Of a stretch of 64,000 nucleotides of DNA, positions 43,935-54,203 are shown piece by piece. The notes beneath the pieces are model-generated. The model did not search any database, was not told the origin of the DNA, and was given only the letters and a program-made list of their open reading frames with translations. The position numbers were made by a program, and so were the translations under genes. This stretch comes from Acanthochlamys bracteata. Taxonomy: Eukaryota; Streptophyta; Magnoliopsida; Pandanales; Velloziaceae. Location: assembly GCA_019914995.1 (NCBI GenBank), contig CM034141.1, forward strand, positions 1,860,001 to 1,924,000, written 5' to 3'. How positions within the stretch are numbered: the first letter of the stretch is position 1; every line of letters starts with the position of its first letter.

Positions 43935-46867
43935 TCAAAATGCACTACCCAGAAAGCTTTGTCTACGCCATGACCAGTAGTTTGATCTCATTGGATCAAC
44001 ATTCTCCAGGATAGTGCAAATAGAGACTGCTGGATGGCCATCTGAAATTTGTTCTGAATTTCTCAAGTTCTCAATAACTCCTTTTAGTTCATCAGATGGT
44101 TGAAAACCATAGCAAAGCATATCCAAAAGCAAAGCCAAAGCAAAACAGAATTTGGTACCGCTTTTCAAAACTTCGAGACATAATTCTGAAACTCGGTTAT
44201 CACGAATCATCAGATCCATTTGATCTTTATATAAACCACGAAGGTACCTCCACGGGCTCTCATTTTCAGGGTGACTTAAAATTGCTTCAGTTGTGTGGCT
44301 GACCTCTGACTCCCGCATGGCTTGAAGCCCACCATGAAGTGGGGACCTTGTAATAACAAAGTACCTCTAAAAAGGAACTCAATGATCAGTAAGCTGCAAT
44401 TTAAATCCAATAAGAATTAAGTTGCAGACAAAATTGCATGTTAAACACAGGCAGATTTAATGAACCTCAATTATTTAAAGCAATTCTATTGTTTAGAGCA
44501 CACTTTCAGATAGAGCAGATGGGGCGGGCAAGGATAGCAGCAAATACCACTTCGCAAAGATGTTCGCCTGTCTTACCCACCATTAGAGCAAACCCAGCAA
44601 TTTCCTCCAGCAGGAAATCAATCATCTAAGGTGACTGTTCTAATTGTTCCAGAGATAGCTGAGTAATTACTCATGAAATTGAAACTTAACTGATACAAGC
44701 ACATCACATTGTTGAAGACAGAATAATAGTTTGAAGGAAGCTATCTACATCACAGAAAGGTGGTTTCTACTTGTAGTAATACATAATGGATAAGCCAGAG
44801 AAGGGCGCTCTCATAAAACAAAGCTGCAGCACACTATAATTTAGGAGGAAAATAAGGACGCTAGCAGACATAGACCATCGGCTAATAGGATTTGATGGAG
44901 TCTCTAAGTTATCCTTATTTCCAAACGCTTCACCCAATAAAGTCCACGTTGTTTCCACACTCAAACTTCTAGAAAGTTATCTACGTTATAGCTTTAGAAT
45001 TCCGTAATATGAACTTGGCAAGCTATGCTAGAATATGTAGAATCCGCATATCCAAGAGCTAACAAATATTACATATTATTCAAAATATTGCTCATATATC
45101 AAAATTTACATAAATTGGATAAAACAAAAAGCAGAAAAGGCAGGATAAAACAAATACATAAGCCAATTTAGAAGGACATAAAAAGAAAGATATTATGGTT
45201 ATCAGTGATTAAACCATTACACTACCTGATTCCATGCAGAATTATTAAAAATGTCATCTTCAAGAAGCTCTCCACAATAATCAAGCTCATCTTCCCAGCC
45301 CCCCAATGCCTGGAGAACCCACTAAAAAAGAATATAAACGAAATAAAGCTGTAATCAGCAAGCTCTTCAAGGAGATGAATGGACACCTTTATTTTGCTCC
45401 AAATTCTCGACCTTTGCTTCCAACATATTTGCCAAACCATAAAATAATTGCTTACACAGTGAGAGCTACAGTAAGTGTTATAAAACACAAGAAAAAAGGA
45501 ATTTACCTGCCTATGTGACCAAGCATGATAGTTTTTAGCATCAACGGAAAGTATCTTCTTCGTGAACTGAAGTTCCTTAGCTACAGATTCAGGTCCTATT
45601 TTCTCAGCAACCCACCTTTTATGATGCCTATAGAAAATGGACTGTGCAATCAGTATGTTGATGTCTCTGAATATAGAATACTGAGCTTATGTTACCAGCA
45701 AAAAAAATGCATTTGATTTATAAATTAAAAAAAAAGCTTCTAAAGCATAACTTGCTCTTGTAAATATATAAAAGTAAGATACATATGGAGTGACTTGTAC
45801 CAGATCTGATAGTTCTTCGAGTTCTTCTTTGCAAAATGATCAATGAATTTTCTCTCCTCATGCAAGTCGACATTTAAAGCCTCAAGCACCAAGCGTCTGA
45901 AATGCCACACCTATTGAATCATGACATATTTGCACCAAGAGTAAATAGAATATGATCATTTCAAGCAGAACTCAACCAGTTATAATCGAAATCCAAACTT
46001 GATCTAAATAATTCGGTCCTAACCTTGTTCTGCGTTGTCCTGAAAAAGACCTACACAATTTTGTGCAAGCTGAAATTATAATAACATATGGAATAAACAT
46101 TTTAGGAAATTATGAAATTTCTCTTTTTAGCCTTTTCTACTTAAGGTTTTAAGAGTTTCTGTATATGAGTCTAGTGAACCTCTATCTAAGAGGAGCATCA
46201 ATTTATTTTATACTAGAGCAAATGTGACAAAATCCAATCTTTTGTCTTGCTCCATACACAAAATTTTGCAGAAATCAATCAATCAAATTCTAATTCCCAC
46301 ATGAGCCAAATAAGTAACATATACATCAACAAAAACCACAACTTTCTTCTTTTCTAATTAACAAAAACCAGTATCAATTCATTCCAAGCTAAATTCTAAT
46401 GAGTTTGTTCTCATAAAAGAATGTGATTCTTCGAAGCAGAATTGTCAATCTTAACAATTATCCTGCGTTCTCCTAAATCAATCGAGACTATTAGTTCAAA
46501 GAACTCATCGACCAAACAAAGAAAGAGAAACGAGATAATTGAATTCAATCCAATCGAAGCGGAGCAGTGAACAAAAATAAATCCGAACAACAATGGAGTT
46601 ATGACTGACAGTATAGTTTCCAGGATTGAGAGCGATAGCTCGAGCGGTGAGTGAAAGCGAGCGAGGGCTGAGTTCGCTAGCGAGATAAACGGCGCGGAAG
46701 TAATCCATAGTCTCTCTGAACTCATCAGTGTAAGCGATCGGGACAACAGGATGGGGCCCATCGTCCTGCGGCACCGGCTTAACGTCCGACCACTCCGGTA
46801 GTGAGCTCAGTCGGCCTGTTGCGACGGAAAATTCCGAATCGCTTTCTTCGTCCGACGATGAAGACAT
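43935..46867 (-). CDS. FTA: Protein farnesyltransferase / geranylgeranyltransferase type-1 alpha subunit
   Basis: Shared alpha subunit of the two CaaX prenyltransferases, which attach farnesyl or geranylgeranyl groups to C-terminal cysteines; in Arabidopsis the gene is PLURIPETALA. Five exons (46867-46610, 45910-45801, 45627-45507, 45321-45226, 44366-43935) give 338 residues, a normal plant length. The N terminus is acidic ([13 protein letters not shown]). Prenyltransferase alpha repeats of the form N-Y-xx-W-xx-R-R follow: [58 protein letters not shown] and [13 protein letters not shown]. One donor reads ACT-GTCAGT, a weak but valid GT site. Acts as a cytosolic heterodimer with FTB or the GGTase-I beta subunit. 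No damage seen; probably functional. Confidence 0.96.
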
Positions 46868-48369: not shown

Positions 48370-48629
48370 ATATACAAGTAAGAAAATATTTGAAAATAAT
48401 TTTAAAAAGTAATTTTTTAAAACGGAATATATTTTTATTATATTTCGATCAACGAGTTTTATTTTTTTATATATAAAAAAATAATAAAAATAAGCAATTT
48501 ATTACGTAAAATGTTTTTAAATTTTTTAAAATTTAAATAAATTCATTGAAATATTATAAAAAAATTTTAAAAAGTGAAAAAAAAAGGTTCAAAAGAAACT
48601 TTTAATTAACGCACCGCCAAACACATCCT
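48370..48629. repeat. Diverged MITE copy, GTTTGG-ended family
   Basis: Internal TAATAAAAATAAGCAATTTA and ATTACGTAAAATGTTTTTAA match the family core, and the right end reads ACGCACCGCCAAACACATCC, the inverted GTTTGG terminus. The left end is diverged. Placed 100 bp before the LTR element. Confidence 0.55.
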
Positions 48630-48729
48630 ACCTTCTTCACTACAGCTTGGCTTTATCAATTGGCCATTTTTGGATTTATCTTAATTTTCTTAACCCTATA
48701 TGTCAATTTATCTGAGAGTTGGTCGTAGG

Positions 48730-48908
48730 TGTTAGATAATGTAAAATTATATTTATATAAAAAGCATATGTGTAATGTCTTGTAAGATTATAAATAGCCT
48801 AAAAATTCAATGAAATACAATTTTTTGCTCGTTTTTTACAGTTTTGTTTAGTTTACGGCAAAGGGTGACCACTCTGGCGGCATCGCCACCGGAGGTCCTC
48901 CTTTTAGT
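48730..48908 (+). repeat. 5' LTR, truncated at its 3' end
   Basis: Shares with the 3' LTR the stretch GTGTAATGTCTTGTAAG, TTATAAATA-CCTAAAAA, TGAAATACAAT-TTTTGC and CAGTTTTGTTTAGTTTAC. It stops after CCTTTTAGT and lacks the TTCTTTTATGCTTTCACA end and any PBS. It passes straight into the inverted internal domain. Confidence 0.8.
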
Positions 48909-49587
48909 CATAATGACTCTTTGCAACGTTTCGTTGAACACCTTGCCTACATTTTCAACTAATCATAAATAACACAAAAAATGACAACAAAAAAGTTACC
49001 ACCAACAACAACTAGATCCCACACCAATGACTCCCACCAATGTCTCCATCATTCCGACTCCACCACGAACACAAAAGATCTACTGTTCTCATCTATGTCC
49101 AACAAACTAAACTAAACAACTAATCTTCCTCCATTCTCAATCTCATTCTCTCCCACTTTCCACATTCCAACAGCAATAACAACATTAACAACACTAAATT
49201 TTAGCAGAAAACCACCGTTGCCTCCTCTACCAACACAACACGAACAACACCAACAAGTACTATCAGCAGCCAACAATAAATTCAGCTTTTATTTTTTTTA
49301 ATAACATTGACAAACAAGATTAGAAAGACGATCTAAACTGAAACTTGATCAAGTAGTGAGATCCAACGAAATAACAAATCTAGCAAGAGAGAAGTGTCCA
49401 GCATAGAGAAAAAGTTGAAAAGATCTAATGACAAGGAGATGCGGCTGCGACGAAAAGAGGCACGGGGGTGGAGACAACAATAACCATAAAGACAACGACA
49501 TCAACAAGAGCAATAACAATAAGAAAACTCGACGGATATGTGTTAGACGGCGAAAGAAGACGATTGGAGACCAAACGACTAATTCGT
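48909..49587 (-). repeat. Inverted copy of the LTR element's internal domain (left arm)
   Basis: The reverse complement aligns with about 49715-50395 over its whole length. Examples: GTTGGAATGTGGAAAGTGGG against GTTGGAATGTGGAAAATGAG, and GCAAGGTGTTCAACGAAACG against GCAAGGTGTTCAACAAAATG. Numerous substitutions separate the arms, so the duplication is not recent or involved two different templates. Confidence 0.85.
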
Positions 49588-49589
49588 CG

Positions 49590-49689
49590 ACTTTTTCTGC
49601 AGTTACGTTTAGTTTACCGCAAAGGGCGGTCGCTCTGGCAGCATCGGTTCTTTTTTAGTTTCTTTTATGCTTTCACATGGTATCAGAGC
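49590..49689 (+). repeat. Central partial LTR end plus tRNA primer-binding site
   Basis: CTTTTTCTGCAGTT-CGTTTAG continues through GGCAGCATCGG to TTTTAGTTTCTTTTATGC and TTTCACA (ends 49677), the same as the end of the 3' LTR. TGGTATCAGAGC follows at once, complementary to the 3' end of plant initiator tRNA-Met. This is the functional LTR-PBS junction, but it lies in the middle of the element. Confidence 0.88.
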
Positions 49690-50857
49690 TAGAGTTCGAT
49701 CTAATGTTCTTGCGCTTGGATCTACTTTCGACGAATCAGCTGTCTGATCTCCATTGTCTTCTTTCGCTGCCTGATACAAATTCGTCGAGTTTTCTTATTA
49801 TCATTGATTTTGTTGATGTCGTCTTTATGGTTATTGTTGTCTCCATCGCCGTGCCTCGTTTCTTCAAAGCCGTATCTCGTTGTCGTTGGATCTTTTCAAC
49901 TTCTTCTCTCTGCTGGACACTTCTCTCTTGCTGGATTTGTTATTTCATTAGATTTCACTGCTAGATTAGGTTTAGGTTTCGGTTCTCTTTCTAACCTTAT
50001 TTGTCAATGTTATTAAAAAAAAAATAAAAGCTGAATTTGTTGTTGGTTGCTGATAGTATTTGTTGGTGTATTGTTCGTGTTGTGTTAGTAGAGAAGACAA
50101 CAGTAGTTTTCTGCTGAAATTTAGTGTTGTTAATATTATTGTTGCTGTTGGAATGTGGAAAATGAGAGAGAATGAGATTGAGAATGAAGGAAGATTAATT
50201 GTTTAGTTTGGTTTGTTGGAGATGGATGAGAACAGTTGGTCTTTTGTGTTTGTGGTGGAGTCGGAGGTGGTGAAGACAGGTATTGTTGGTGGTGATTTTT
50301 TTGTTGTTATTGCTGGTATTGTTTGTGGCTAGTTGAAGATGTATGCAAGGTGTTCAACAAAATGTTGCAAAGAGTCATTATAACTAAACTTGTCGTAGAA
50401 GATGGAGGAGAGCCTCGCTGTGCTCTTTCGGCTTTTACTTTTAGCTTTGAGACTATTGGTTCGCGTTTTGGATTGGAGATATCATTATCACCCCCCTTCT
50501 CTTTATCCATGTTGGTTGTCTTTGATTGCTAACTCTGCAACTCCAAATTTACTACTGCTTTAGATATATATTTGGGTTCTCTTCTATGCCTCAAAAAGGG
50601 GATTCGTATTTGAATTCCGTAAAAGAATTTGTATTTGGTTTCGAAAATTTTTTTGGGTTCTTTCGTTCCGAAAAAGGAGTTGTATTTGGTTCCGAGAAAA
50701 AATTTGGGTTGCATTTGACTCCTAAAGTAATCTTTGGTATGTTTCTTTTATTAGAATTTCTCTTGAAACAGCTGGTTTTAAAGTGTAATAGAAATAGCAA
50801 ATTATATATTTTTGTTTGTAAACTCTCGATGTTGGACAACGTAAGTTTAAGAGGAAA
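49690..50857 (+). repeat. Forward internal domain (right arm) and polypurine tract
   Basis: About 49715-50395 is the partner of the inverted left arm. Beyond it, to 50857, is unique internal sequence with no gag or pol frames; small ORFs there are Phe/Leu-rich and not recognisable. AAGAGGAAA at 50849-50857 abuts the 3' LTR as a polypurine tract should. Confidence 0.75.
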
Positions 50858-51028
50858 TGTTAAGATATGTAAAATATTATTATTATAAGGAGTATAAGTG
50901 TAATGTCTTGTAAGGTTATAAATAACCTAAAAACCTAATCAAATACAATCTTTTGCCCTTTTTCTGCAGTTTTGTTTAGTTTACTGGAAGGGCCGGCCCT
51001 TCCTTTTAGTTTCTTTTATGCTTTCACA
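50858..51028 (+). repeat. 3' LTR, 171 bp, complete TG...CA
   Basis: Begins TGTTAAGATATGTAAAAT, ends TTTTATGCTTTCACA. A TATA-like TTATAAATAACC lies near the middle and the LTR length suits a TRIM or other small non-autonomous copia-type element. Confidence 0.85.
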
Positions 51029-51033
51029 GTGGG

Positions 51034-52652
51034 TTCAAAGAACAATCATAGGATTGGAAAACCTTTCACGGTTCAGTAGTGCCTGTTCTCTACCGTGGTA
51101 ATTATAATTAGTGAGTGCTTATGTATGCTAAGCCGTTGTGAAAATAGTATGTTCTACATATGCATGCAGTTGTTGATTACACGTTGTAAATATAGCCAGC
51201 ATCATAATACAAGCTTTTTTCCAAAAAAAAAAAAAAGAAATAAAAAGAAAAGAAGAGAGAGCACGAGATTAATATAAAGTTACGCATTTGCAGTAATTGA
51301 GTTTCTACGGAGCATTGAGAAGCAGGAGACCTAACGCATGTTTGGTAGATTTTGTTGAAAACAGATTACAGATTTTGAATTCTATATAAAATTAGAAAAG
51401 ACATTTGGTTCAGTTTGTTTTACTGATTCTCTAATATTAAATTATATACCTTAACTGAAAAACGTTTGGTAATATTTCTGCTAATAATTCTAACTTATGA
51501 GAATCAGAAAAATATTAGAATCTAAAAGTTAGCAGACCCAAGTTAATTTCTGAGTTTTATGTTAATTTTGTATTTAGATTCTTAATAGCTATGGCAGAAA
51601 GGCTAAAGTAAAGAAAGCTACATTGTTTCATATATACAGGATATATGATATTTGGGTTTAAAAGTGCCAAAGCACATTGAATGGTAGGTGCAAGAAGTAA
51701 CGTGAATTTCCAATCTACAAACTAAAAGTGATTTAAGAGATCGATGATGAGACTAGAATTAACTATAAAGAGCTGACCTTTTCATGAAGCTCATGCCTAC
51801 TGTTACACCCTGGCTATGAACAAAGCTCTCATTACTATAATTACCCGACCATTCCCAGCTCCGTCTCTTCTCTGAATCTCTAGCTACTCAAATACTCCAT
51901 CTTTCCTCAATACGATCTCAATGTGTTTGATGATGCAAGAGGATCGTTGCTTCGAATAAACCCAAACTAATAAATTAAGAGAACCCATTGGCACCAATTG
52001 CATGCAAACTCCGCTGTCAATTTCACAATTTGGAATAAATAAACAATTAAGTCTAAGTTTTTATATAGCAGATAGATGTCTTCCCTAACTCAGAAGCTCT
52101 ACATGCATGACTTTGAAGGCATATCTGGAATTGCTTATCAATTACAATAAATTTTTTTTCAACTTAAAAAATTTATGCACTATTTTTTAAAAAATTTAAA
52201 AAATATAGATAAAATATAAGTTATAAATTATTATATATATAATTTTTTTTTAAATATTTATAAAATAATATACCTAAATTTTTTTATAAAAAAAAAACAG
52301 TTTTTCAATATGCACTCTCTCAAACATCCCCTGAATTATTTCGCTCCGTTGAAAATTCAAGTGATTAGCTGTCCTATTCGAAGAACACTGGATTCTTTTC
52401 GATCTATTCGCCAAGTCAATGTAACTAAGCATTATTTCTTCATGTGAAGACCTATTTAATATTCCAAGACTAAAGAAAAGCTGGGGAAGTTGCTGCTTAA
52501 TAATGCCAAGAAGTGACATGAAAGTCAATGTCATTATTTGCCGTGTAAGGTATATATATTGGAAAATTCGAAGGCTTTTTCTGTTTTGGAGATAAGTAAG
52601 CTACAACGTGCAACTCAGTTGTAGTAACTCGTTATTACGCAGAGTCCCCAAC
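51034..52652. other. Upstream region of the ankyrin gene with a MITE-like insertion
   Basis: No gene seen. About 52129-52333 has ends GGAATTGCTTATCAATTAC and CACTCTCTCAAACATCCCC with an AT-rich core, a diverged copy of the GTTTGG-ended MITE family. A poly-A tract of 13 near 51223-51235 and AG-rich DNA follow. The ankyrin gene's promoter should lie at 52350-52600; ATATATATTGG near 52550 is a possible TATA region. Confidence 0.45.
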
Positions 52653-54203
52653 ATGGAGGACAGACTTAAGGAAGCTTCATACTCCGGCGATGTCCTGGAA
52701 CTTAACAAGCTACTCCAAGAAGACAGGCTTCTATTACATAGATCCGCAGAGCTTGATCATGCCACTGATAGTCCTTTACACATCTCAGCAGCACTTGGCC
52801 ATGCAGATTTTACTCGAGAAATTCTCGTCCACAACCCTGAGCTAGCACGGAAATTAGGCACCGGAGGACTTTCCCCTCTCCACCTTGCTTCGGCTAATGG
52901 CAACTTACAAGTAGTGAAGGAGTTGTTATTGCACGAGTTAGGTAGTGAGCTATGTTTTTTGCTTGACAAGAAGGGATTTCTGCCTATTCATTACGCAGCA
53001 ATCCAAGGTCAAATTGAAGTCTTGAAAGAGCTTGCAGACACAAATCCAAACACCATAAAAGTTGTCACCTGTGGAAATGAGAGCACGCTGCACCTAGCTG
53101 TTCGGTCAAGCTGTGTTGAAGTGGTCCGGCTACTGCTTGAGAGGATGGGTGATGATGATGAGTTCCTCAACTTAAAGGATTCTAGGGGCAACACAGCGCT
53201 GCATCTCGCCATGGCTAGTAGGCAACTCCATGTAAGTATACATACATGTGGCAAGAATGTTTTTAATTATGTTTTTCAATAGAACTTAGTTACAAATTGA
53301 AGGAATTTTCCATGGGTTACTCTGTTTTTACAGACAGTCAAGTTGCTATTGAGCAAGGGCAGAGATGTTGAATATGTGAACACAGAGAACAACAACGGTT
53401 TGACACCATTGGATGTACTGCTAGAAACGTCAATGGAGTCCGGCGACTTGATATTAGGGGAGTTGATCCGAACTGCTGGCGGGAAGACAAAGAATGAATT
53501 GAGGTCAGTAACAGAGCCAGTAGTTATAACTAATTTTCAAGGGATAACTTCTTCAGAACAAATTACTTCTGACCGTAGAAATGCAAACTCTAAGTCAGGA
53601 TCAGAGGATAATGATACGCCTAGTCCGGAAGTACTAATGGTAGTGGCGACACTTATTGCAACCATTACCTTTCAGGCAGGTCTAAATCCACCAGGCGGAT
53701 TTGAACAATCAGACAGCAACAAGGGTGAAGTTTCGCCTAGTTATGAAGGCTCGAAACCAGGCCAAGCAGTTTTGGGTTATGCACTAACCCGTTTTCTTAT
53801 ATTCGACATCGTTGGCCTATTTGCATCACTTAGTATAATCCTGTTGTTTACCTGTTTCATCCCTCGAGAGAAGAAAATGTTCACGAGAGTACTAACATGG
53901 GTCATGTGGTTAGCTGTCTTCTCAACTGCACTGGCTTTCACCGCAGGAACCTTTCAGATCTTCCCAGACAAAACGTATCCTAAAGTCCTTTATATAGGTT
54001 GGGACTTGGTTTCAGGGTTGTTCGTTTTGTGGATTTCCATCCGGTTCATCAAACGCTTGTTGCAGACTATTAAGCAGAGAAGAATTCAAGGTGGAAGTGT
54101 TCTTACAAAGACCATTTGTTGTATTGTTATCAAAAGAACAATCTCGGGATTGATGGCTGTTGGCTTAGTTTTCTCAGTGTTTTATGTTCTTTACAGTATT
54201 TAA
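52653..54203 (+). CDS. Ankyrin-repeat membrane protein with PGG domain (ITN1/ACD6-like)
   Basis: Two exons (52653-53231, 53334-54203) encode 482 residues. Five or six ankyrin repeats span residues about 1-250, with clear cores DSPLHISAALGHADFTREIL, LSPLHLASANGNLQVVKELL, FLPIHYAAIQGQIEVLKEL, ESTLHLAVRSSCVEVVRLLL and NTALHLAMASRQL. The PGG domain follows: VVATLIATITFQAGLNPPGG. Four hydrophobic segments (IFDIVGLFASLSIILLFT, MWLAVFSTALAFTAGTF, DLVSGLFVLWISI, GLMAVGLVFSVFYVLYSI) would anchor it in a membrane with the ankyrin part cytosolic. Relatives in Arabidopsis (ITN1, ACD6, BDA1) act in salt stress or immunity; this member's role is inferred only. ATG 52653 has context AACATGG. The frame is intact. 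Confidence 0.93.

What the first reader, a model, noticed from the sequence alone, without database searches (positions are those of the whole stretch)
48730..51028. Palindromic LTR retroelement: interior duplicated as an inverted repeat around a central PBS
The order is 5' LTR (truncated), reversed interior, LTR end plus PBS, forward interior, PPT, 3' LTR, with near-identical 5-bp flanking duplications (GTAGG/GTGGG). The whole compound therefore seems to have integrated as one unit, not by later nested insertion. A strand switch or self-primed synthesis during reverse transcription would produce such a molecule. An RNA from it would fold on itself over about 680 bp and feed RNA silencing.
Basis: partly seen in the sequence, partly recalled or inferred. 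Interest (0 to 1): 0.8.

Follow-up and report, generated by a model that had tools for sequence, protein, structure and literature searches.

The report
Retrotransposon copy with inverted self-duplication
An old, non-coding plant jumping-gene copy carries a backwards copy of part of its own middle inside its left end, most likely made by a copying slip before it landed in the chromosome; it looks like a one-off fossil, not a new kind of mobile element.

Summary
At 48730-51028 lies a non-coding LTR element whose left LTR is interrupted by a reversed copy (48903-49590) of part of its own interior (49728-50388). Arms: 82.5% identical over 692 columns. An LTR tail and the primer-binding site sit between them. 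Flanks GTAGG/GTGGG match at 4 of 5 bases. Fourteen ordinary two-LTR relatives were found; 0 of 14 has inverted arms, and neither junction was found elsewhere in this genome.

The arms are about as diverged as the two LTRs (K2P 0.155 and 0.187; p = 0.42), so the inversion dates from near the insertion. The insert lies between U3 and the primer site, so another round of retrotransposition should put it in both LTRs. The 3' LTR lacks it: a first-generation product, not a mobile compound. Best reading: two template switches during reverse transcription, one at a 6-7-nt microhomology, one blunt near the predicted RNA start. A DNA-level template switch soon after integration, or two parental elements, is not excluded. 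A long RNA hairpin is predicted; silencing is untested. New variant of known template-switch complexes; moderate interest.

The parts
48725..48729 (.). left flanking 5-mer GTAGG (putative target-site duplication)
   Evidence: partner GTGGG at 51029-51033, 4 of 5 identical (for chance)
48730..48908 (+). left LTR: U3, TATA-like TATAAATA, R and most of U5; ends in TTTTAGT, lacks about the last 18 bp
48903..48908 (.). left junction microhomology TTTAGT(T), shared by the LTR tail and the reversed arm
48903..49590 (-). reversed copy of interior 49728-50388
   Evidence: 82.5% identity over 692 columns, E = 0; 86.3% over 657 ungapped sites
49591..49677 (+). central LTR tail (R-U5); its start maps to 50958 of the 3' LTR, 41 nt after the TATA-like box; blunt junction with the reversed arm
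   Evidence: last 25 bp identical to the end of the 3' LTR
49678..49695 (+). primer-binding site TGGTATCAGAGC..., of the initiator-methionine tRNA type (recalled)
   Evidence: a comparable site follows the 5' LTR of L019
49728..50388 (+). forward copy of the duplicated interior stretch
50389..50857 (+). rest of the interior, ending in a purine-rich tract (GTTTAAGAGGAAA) like that of relatives
50858..51028 (+). 3' LTR, 171 bp, TG...CA, without any inverted insert
51029..51033 (.). right flanking 5-mer GTGGG

Best explanation
A non-autonomous LTR retrotransposon RNA was reverse transcribed with two abnormal template switches, and the resulting DNA was integrated once. Proposed order, all inferred: the plus-strand strong-stop DNA, copying U3-R-U5, stopped near the end of U5; its 3' end (TTTTAGT) paired with the sense interior near 50388 through a 6-7-nt microhomology and copied it backwards to 49728; it then jumped, without homology, onto the free 3' end of a minus-strand strong-stop DNA (the copy of the RNA's 5' end) and copied R-U5 and the primer site. 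Transfer of this elongated strand to the primer-site end of the minus strand gives U3-R-U5*, reversed interior, R-U5, PBS, interior, U3-R-U5. Shown: anatomy, similar age of arms and LTRs, ordinary relatives, uniqueness of both junctions in the searches made. Inferred: that the switches happened in reverse transcription, their order, and the one-off status, which rests on the absence of the insert from the 3' LTR.
For: Flanking 5-mers agree at 4 of 5 (2.2% by chance), the state also of 4 of 14 relatives, with 5 of 14 perfect (by eye). Arms K2P 0.155 (95% 0.123-0.192; counts), LTR5-LTR3 K2P 0.187 (0.113-0.282; counts), ratio 0.83 (0.52-1.43), Fisher p 0.42. Over 45 shared ungapped sites the three LTR pieces differ by 9, 12 and 11. 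The centre junction maps to 50958 of the 3' LTR, 41 nt after TATAAATA, close to where an RNA should begin (TATA-to-start spacing of about 32 nt recalled). Left junction: 6-7-nt microhomology; centre junction: none. 14 of 14 two-LTR relatives lack inverted arms. Neither junction query found a second place that crosses the junction. The 3' LTR has no insert.
Against: The same junctions can come from replication-based template switching after integration, and the ratio's interval allows an event well after insertion. Untrimmed alignments, with non-homologous ends included, give a lower ratio (arms 0.184 over 702 sites, LTR5-LTR3 0.286 over 162). Gapped alignment puts the central tail nearer the 3' LTR (0.109, 79 sites, 6 gaps) than the left LTR (0.222, 54 sites), and trees group those two (80; 86/78). 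The first 27 bp of the left LTR are nearer another subfamily (19 of 27 identical to the 3' LTR, 24 of 27 to L010_3 and L014_5); left and 3' LTR do not pair in the U3 trees, though one clade is not rejected (AU p 0.216, 0.265). The reversed arm has more derived changes, 23 against 13, p 0.13. The junction is about 9 nt past the start predicted from TATA. The flanking repeat is imperfect.
Confidence: 0.6

Rival explanations
1. Post-integration rearrangement: an ordinary element inserted; soon after, a replication or repair fork copied the 5' LTR to TTTTAGT, switched by microhomology to the opposite strand in the interior, copied it backwards, and returned to the 5' LTR 79 bp upstream of where it left, duplicating 48830-48908.
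For: Microhomology at one junction, none at the other, and a short duplication at the re-entry point are typical of such events (recalled; the MMBIR model paper PMC2621351 was seen only as a search listing). The arm/LTR divergence ratio may be as low as 0.52. Flanking repeat and a 3' LTR without insert fit equally well.
Against: The re-entry point lies near the predicted 5' end of the RNA, a coincidence on this model. A late event would make the left LTR and the central tail sisters; they differ at 9 of 45 sites, against 12 and 11 for the other pairs, and trees put the central tail with the 3' LTR instead. An early event is not excluded.
Confidence: 0.28
2. Two parents: the left end comes from another subfamily member, by a fusion of parts of two insertions or by co-packaging of two RNAs.
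For: First 27 bp of the left LTR resemble L010/L014-type LTRs; LTR5 and LTR3 do not pair in the U3 tree, where 9 of 13 relatives' LTR pairs do; the central tail groups with the 3' LTR.
Against: Bases 28-90 of LTR5 and LTR3 do pair (87/69.7, not starred); one clade is not rejected (AU p 0.216, 0.265 for U3; 0.426 for LTR5 with LTR3 and 0.431 for the three pieces over the full LTR); flanking 5-mers agree at 4 of 5; no reversed LTR accompanies the reversed arm, as a nested antisense element would leave.
Confidence: 0.09
3. A mobile compound lineage: a hairpin element that transposes as such.
For: None beyond the intact order of primer site, purine tract and LTRs.
Against: A further normal round would copy the insert into both LTRs, giving LTRs of about 0.95 kb; the 3' LTR is 171 bp. 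No second junction copy was found.
Confidence: 0.03

Closest known systems
Template-switching complexes of LTR retrotransposons (Sabot and Schulman 2007, PMC1950507; whole text read)
   Same: Complex element with three LTR pieces, flanked by a 5-bp duplication, explained by abnormal template switching in reverse transcription.
   Different: Those have two complete cores sharing a whole third LTR; here part of the core is inverted and the third LTR is an 87-bp tail.
Inverted Penelope-like elements of rotifers (PMC3846280; passages read)
   Same: Retroelements with inverted-repeat structures, for which self-priming and template jumps are proposed.
   Different: Penelope elements have their own enzymes and pseudo-LTRs; here the palindrome lies inside an LTR element with a tRNA-type primer site.
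Mu killer of maize (PMC3440606; abstract start and passages read)
   Same: Partial inverted duplication of a transposon that could give hairpin RNA.
   Different: Mu killer derives from MuDR, a DNA transposon, and has genetic and transcript evidence; here only a predicted fold.
Short non-autonomous LTR retrotransposons (TRIM, LARD and intermediates; definitions recalled)
   Same: 171-bp LTRs, tRNA-type primer site, purine tract, no coding capacity found.
   Different: The interior of about 1.2 kb is longer than that of classical TRIMs; 14 of 14 two-LTR relatives lack an inverted arm.

Membership tests
Non-autonomous LTR retrotransposon | two direct LTRs with TG...CA ends | tested here: met
   3' LTR TG...CACA; left LTR begins TG, central tail ends CACA; several relatives alike
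Non-autonomous LTR retrotransposon | primer-binding site and polypurine tract next to the LTRs | tested here: met
Non-autonomous LTR retrotransposon | no coding capacity for gag-pol | tested here: met
   longest stop-free stretch of 49678-50860 is 111 codons; the 120-aa ORF at 50526-50888 has no Pfam match at E 0.001
TRIM (strict) | interior of a few hundred bases (recalled) | tested here: not met
   1180 bp from PBS to 3' LTR
Template-switching complex (Sabot and Schulman) | flanking 5-bp duplication | tested here: inconclusive
   GTAGG/GTGGG, 4 of 5; 2.2% by chance
Template-switching complex (Sabot and Schulman) | outer LTRs from the same reverse-transcription cycle | tested here: inconclusive
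   one clade not rejected but not shown for whole U3; bases 28-90 pair, unstarred
Template-switching complex (Sabot and Schulman) | internal third LTR and two complete cores | tested here: not met
   87-bp LTR tail and a partial, inverted second core
Mu killer-like silencing locus | inverted duplication with hairpin-forming potential | tested here: met
   predicted fold -921.9 kcal/mol for 1486 nt, no shuffle control at this length
Mu killer-like silencing locus | transcript and small RNAs that silence relatives | not testable with these tools
   no expression or small-RNA data at hand

The most novel reading that the evidence does not exclude
The locus preserves an elongated plus-strand strong-stop DNA: a record that, in a plant LTR retrotransposon, strong-stop DNA can extend on a sense template and then jump to the end of a second strong-stop DNA, giving integration-competent palindromes. 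Such events would make LTR elements a source of ready-made hairpin loci against their own family.
Probability: 0.3. Interest if true: 0.6.

Novelty: new variant of a known kind. Interest (0 to 1): 0.4.

Why it matters
Inverted products of LTR-element reverse transcription that have integrated would be a direct route from ordinary retrotransposition to hairpin loci that could start silencing. The rule used here, an insert between U3 and primer site present in the 5' LTR only, offers a simple way to look for first-generation products in any genome. One old copy without expression data is not enough to show that the route is used.

Tried and rejected
Mobile compound: disfavoured by the 3' LTR and by the junction searches. 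Nested antisense insertion: disfavoured because no reversed LTR accompanies the reversed arm. Different parents for the two arms: relatives agree with the forward arm more often over pooled sites (157 against 73, 25 neither), but per site the difference is not significant (23 against 13 derived, 3 undecided, of 39 sites with an outgroup out of 90 differing). Empty site: left and right flank searches and the best left-flank relative, L043, gave no copy spanning the site. Autonomous partner: in L014, whose LTR pair is 6.1 kb apart, the longest ORF is 132 aa; not followed further. Literature: eight searches were aimed at inverted or aberrant products; I saw titles and abstract starts of the listed papers only (20 of 27, 15 of 118), and none of those names an inverted LTR-element insertion of this kind. 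One search was for the Sabot and Schulman paper, for Mu killer. Absence from these listings is not absence from print.

Rows dropped: LTRc, L033 and L034 from the first U3 tree, and L033 and L036 from the full-LTR tree (one search reused those sets); L028 (both LTRs) and L036 from the extended U3 trees. L041 and L042 were fetched but not scanned for LTR pairs, which covered 31 loci. Target-site duplications were read by eye.

Full report
What is there. The window lies in a 195.5-Mb genome of 557 contigs, at C16:1860001-1924000; plant origin is my inference from gene content and repeats. The element spans 48730-51028. The left LTR (48730-48908) runs to TTTTAGT and lacks about its last 18 bp. 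Then comes a reversed copy (48903-49590) of interior 49728-50388, an 87-bp LTR tail (49591-49677), the primer site, the whole forward interior, a purine-rich tract and a 171-bp 3' LTR (50858-51028). The arms align at 82.5% identity over 692 columns and 86.3% over 657 ungapped sites, with 68 transitions and 22 transversions. I found no coding capacity in the interior.

Family. A search with the element gave 52 matches, its own place and arms included (counts are lower bounds), and searches with three relatives added places (many of those hits are nested short repeats). Of 31 loci scanned for LTR pairs, 14 have two family LTRs, with starts 1.0-2.2 kb apart, or 6.1 kb in L014. None of these 14 has two inverted arms (E up to 0.01); the self-complementary hits in L010, L014, L015, L021 and L039 are local palindromes. 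Taking the 761-bp offset between left LTR and central tail from the 2129 bp between LTR starts of the window element leaves about 1370 bp, within the range of relatives.

Junctions. In plus orientation the LTR reads TTTTAGTTTC and the reversed interior would read GTTTAGTTATAATG; the sequence has TTTTAGTCATAATG, so 6-7 bases are shared at the left junction. At the centre, ATTCGTCGA of the arm meets CTTTTTCTGCAG of the LTR with no shared base. Mapped on the 3' LTR the centre junction is base 50958, 41 nt after the first T of TATAAATA (50917). As plant transcripts start about 32 nt after that base (recalled), the piece re-entered is close to the R-U5 part made as strong-stop DNA. I count this as moderate evidence only. 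The junction queries 48820-49000 and 49500-49760 gave 5 and 3 matches; none but the window itself crosses its junction.

Age. K2P is 0.155 for the arms and 0.187 for LTR5-LTR3 over 134 aligned sites; ratio 0.83, 95% 0.52-1.43; Fisher p 0.42. Untrimmed alignments that include non-homologous ends gave 0.184 and 0.286. LTR pairs of six relatives measured as in the trimmed case lie at 0.084-0.216. Over 45 shared ungapped sites the three LTR pieces differ by 9 (left-centre), 12 (left-3') and 11 (centre-3'). With gaps allowed, centre-3' is closer (0.109 over 79 sites, 6 gaps) than left-centre (0.222 over 54 sites). A 26-column stretch missing in the 3' LTR, and 10 columns of it in the central tail, is present in several relatives, so its presence in the left LTR is probably ancestral. 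A late local rearrangement is therefore unlikely; an early one is not excluded.

Results that do not fit neatly. In U3 trees the left and 3' LTRs of this element do not pair, while 9 of 13 relatives' pairs do; the 3' LTR groups with L015 and L016 (85/93). The central tail groups with the 3' LTR (80; 86/78). Holding LTR5 and LTR3 together is not rejected (AU p 0.216, 0.265 for U3; 0.426 for the full LTR, 0.431 with the tail). The signal sits in the first 27 bp; over bases 28-90 the two LTRs are sisters (87/69.7, unstarred). Either a few indels in AT-rich sequence or a second parental RNA explains this. The reversed arm has more derived changes than the forward one, not significantly.

Why it is a first-generation product. 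In LTR retrotransposition everything between the start of U3 and the primer site becomes LTR on both sides in the next round (established replication scheme; the Ty3 review PMC5371799 was read in passages). The insert lies in that interval, but only on the left. So the present structure has not been through a further normal round. This follows from logic, not from an experiment.

Mechanism. The proposed path is given under best explanation. The Ty3 passages describe repeated priming at the purine tract and accumulation of dead-end plus-strand strong-stop DNA, which makes such a strand a plausible substrate; inverted products are not mentioned in the passages I saw. Sabot and Schulman give the nearest precedent for complexes by template switching, with whole cores and without inversion.

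Function. The 1486-nt RNA 48903-50388 is predicted to fold into one long stem, -921.9 kcal/mol, without a shuffle control because of its length. A transcript from the left LTR would include it. Whether it is transcribed or yields small RNAs is unknown. The element sits between a minus-strand ORF with a weak prenyltransferase-alpha repeat match (43935-44318, 21.2 bits against a cut-off of 29.5) and plus-strand ankyrin and PGG ORFs (52608-54203).

Noticed in passing
48380-48630: A stretch just left of the element matches more than 20 listed places, mostly at 73-79% identity: a short dispersed repeat, probably a MITE.
   Followed up: no
52608-54203: Ankyrin-repeat and PGG-domain ORFs, probably one gene, about 1.6 kb right of the element.
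   Followed up: partly
43935-44318: Weak match to the prenyltransferase alpha-subunit repeat on the minus strand, below Pfam's cut-off.
   Followed up: no
48730-48756: First 27 bp of the left LTR resemble another subfamily (L010, L014) more than the element's own 3' LTR.
   Followed up: partly
L017:2958-3059: A 102-bp piece at C1:1463457-1463558 matches the arms at 91%, the highest arm identity of any other locus, with no LTR pair found around it.
   Followed up: no
L015 (C6:4671199-4673563): This relative holds a nested repeat of about 660 bp that matches about 40 listed places at 77-87% identity.
   Followed up: no
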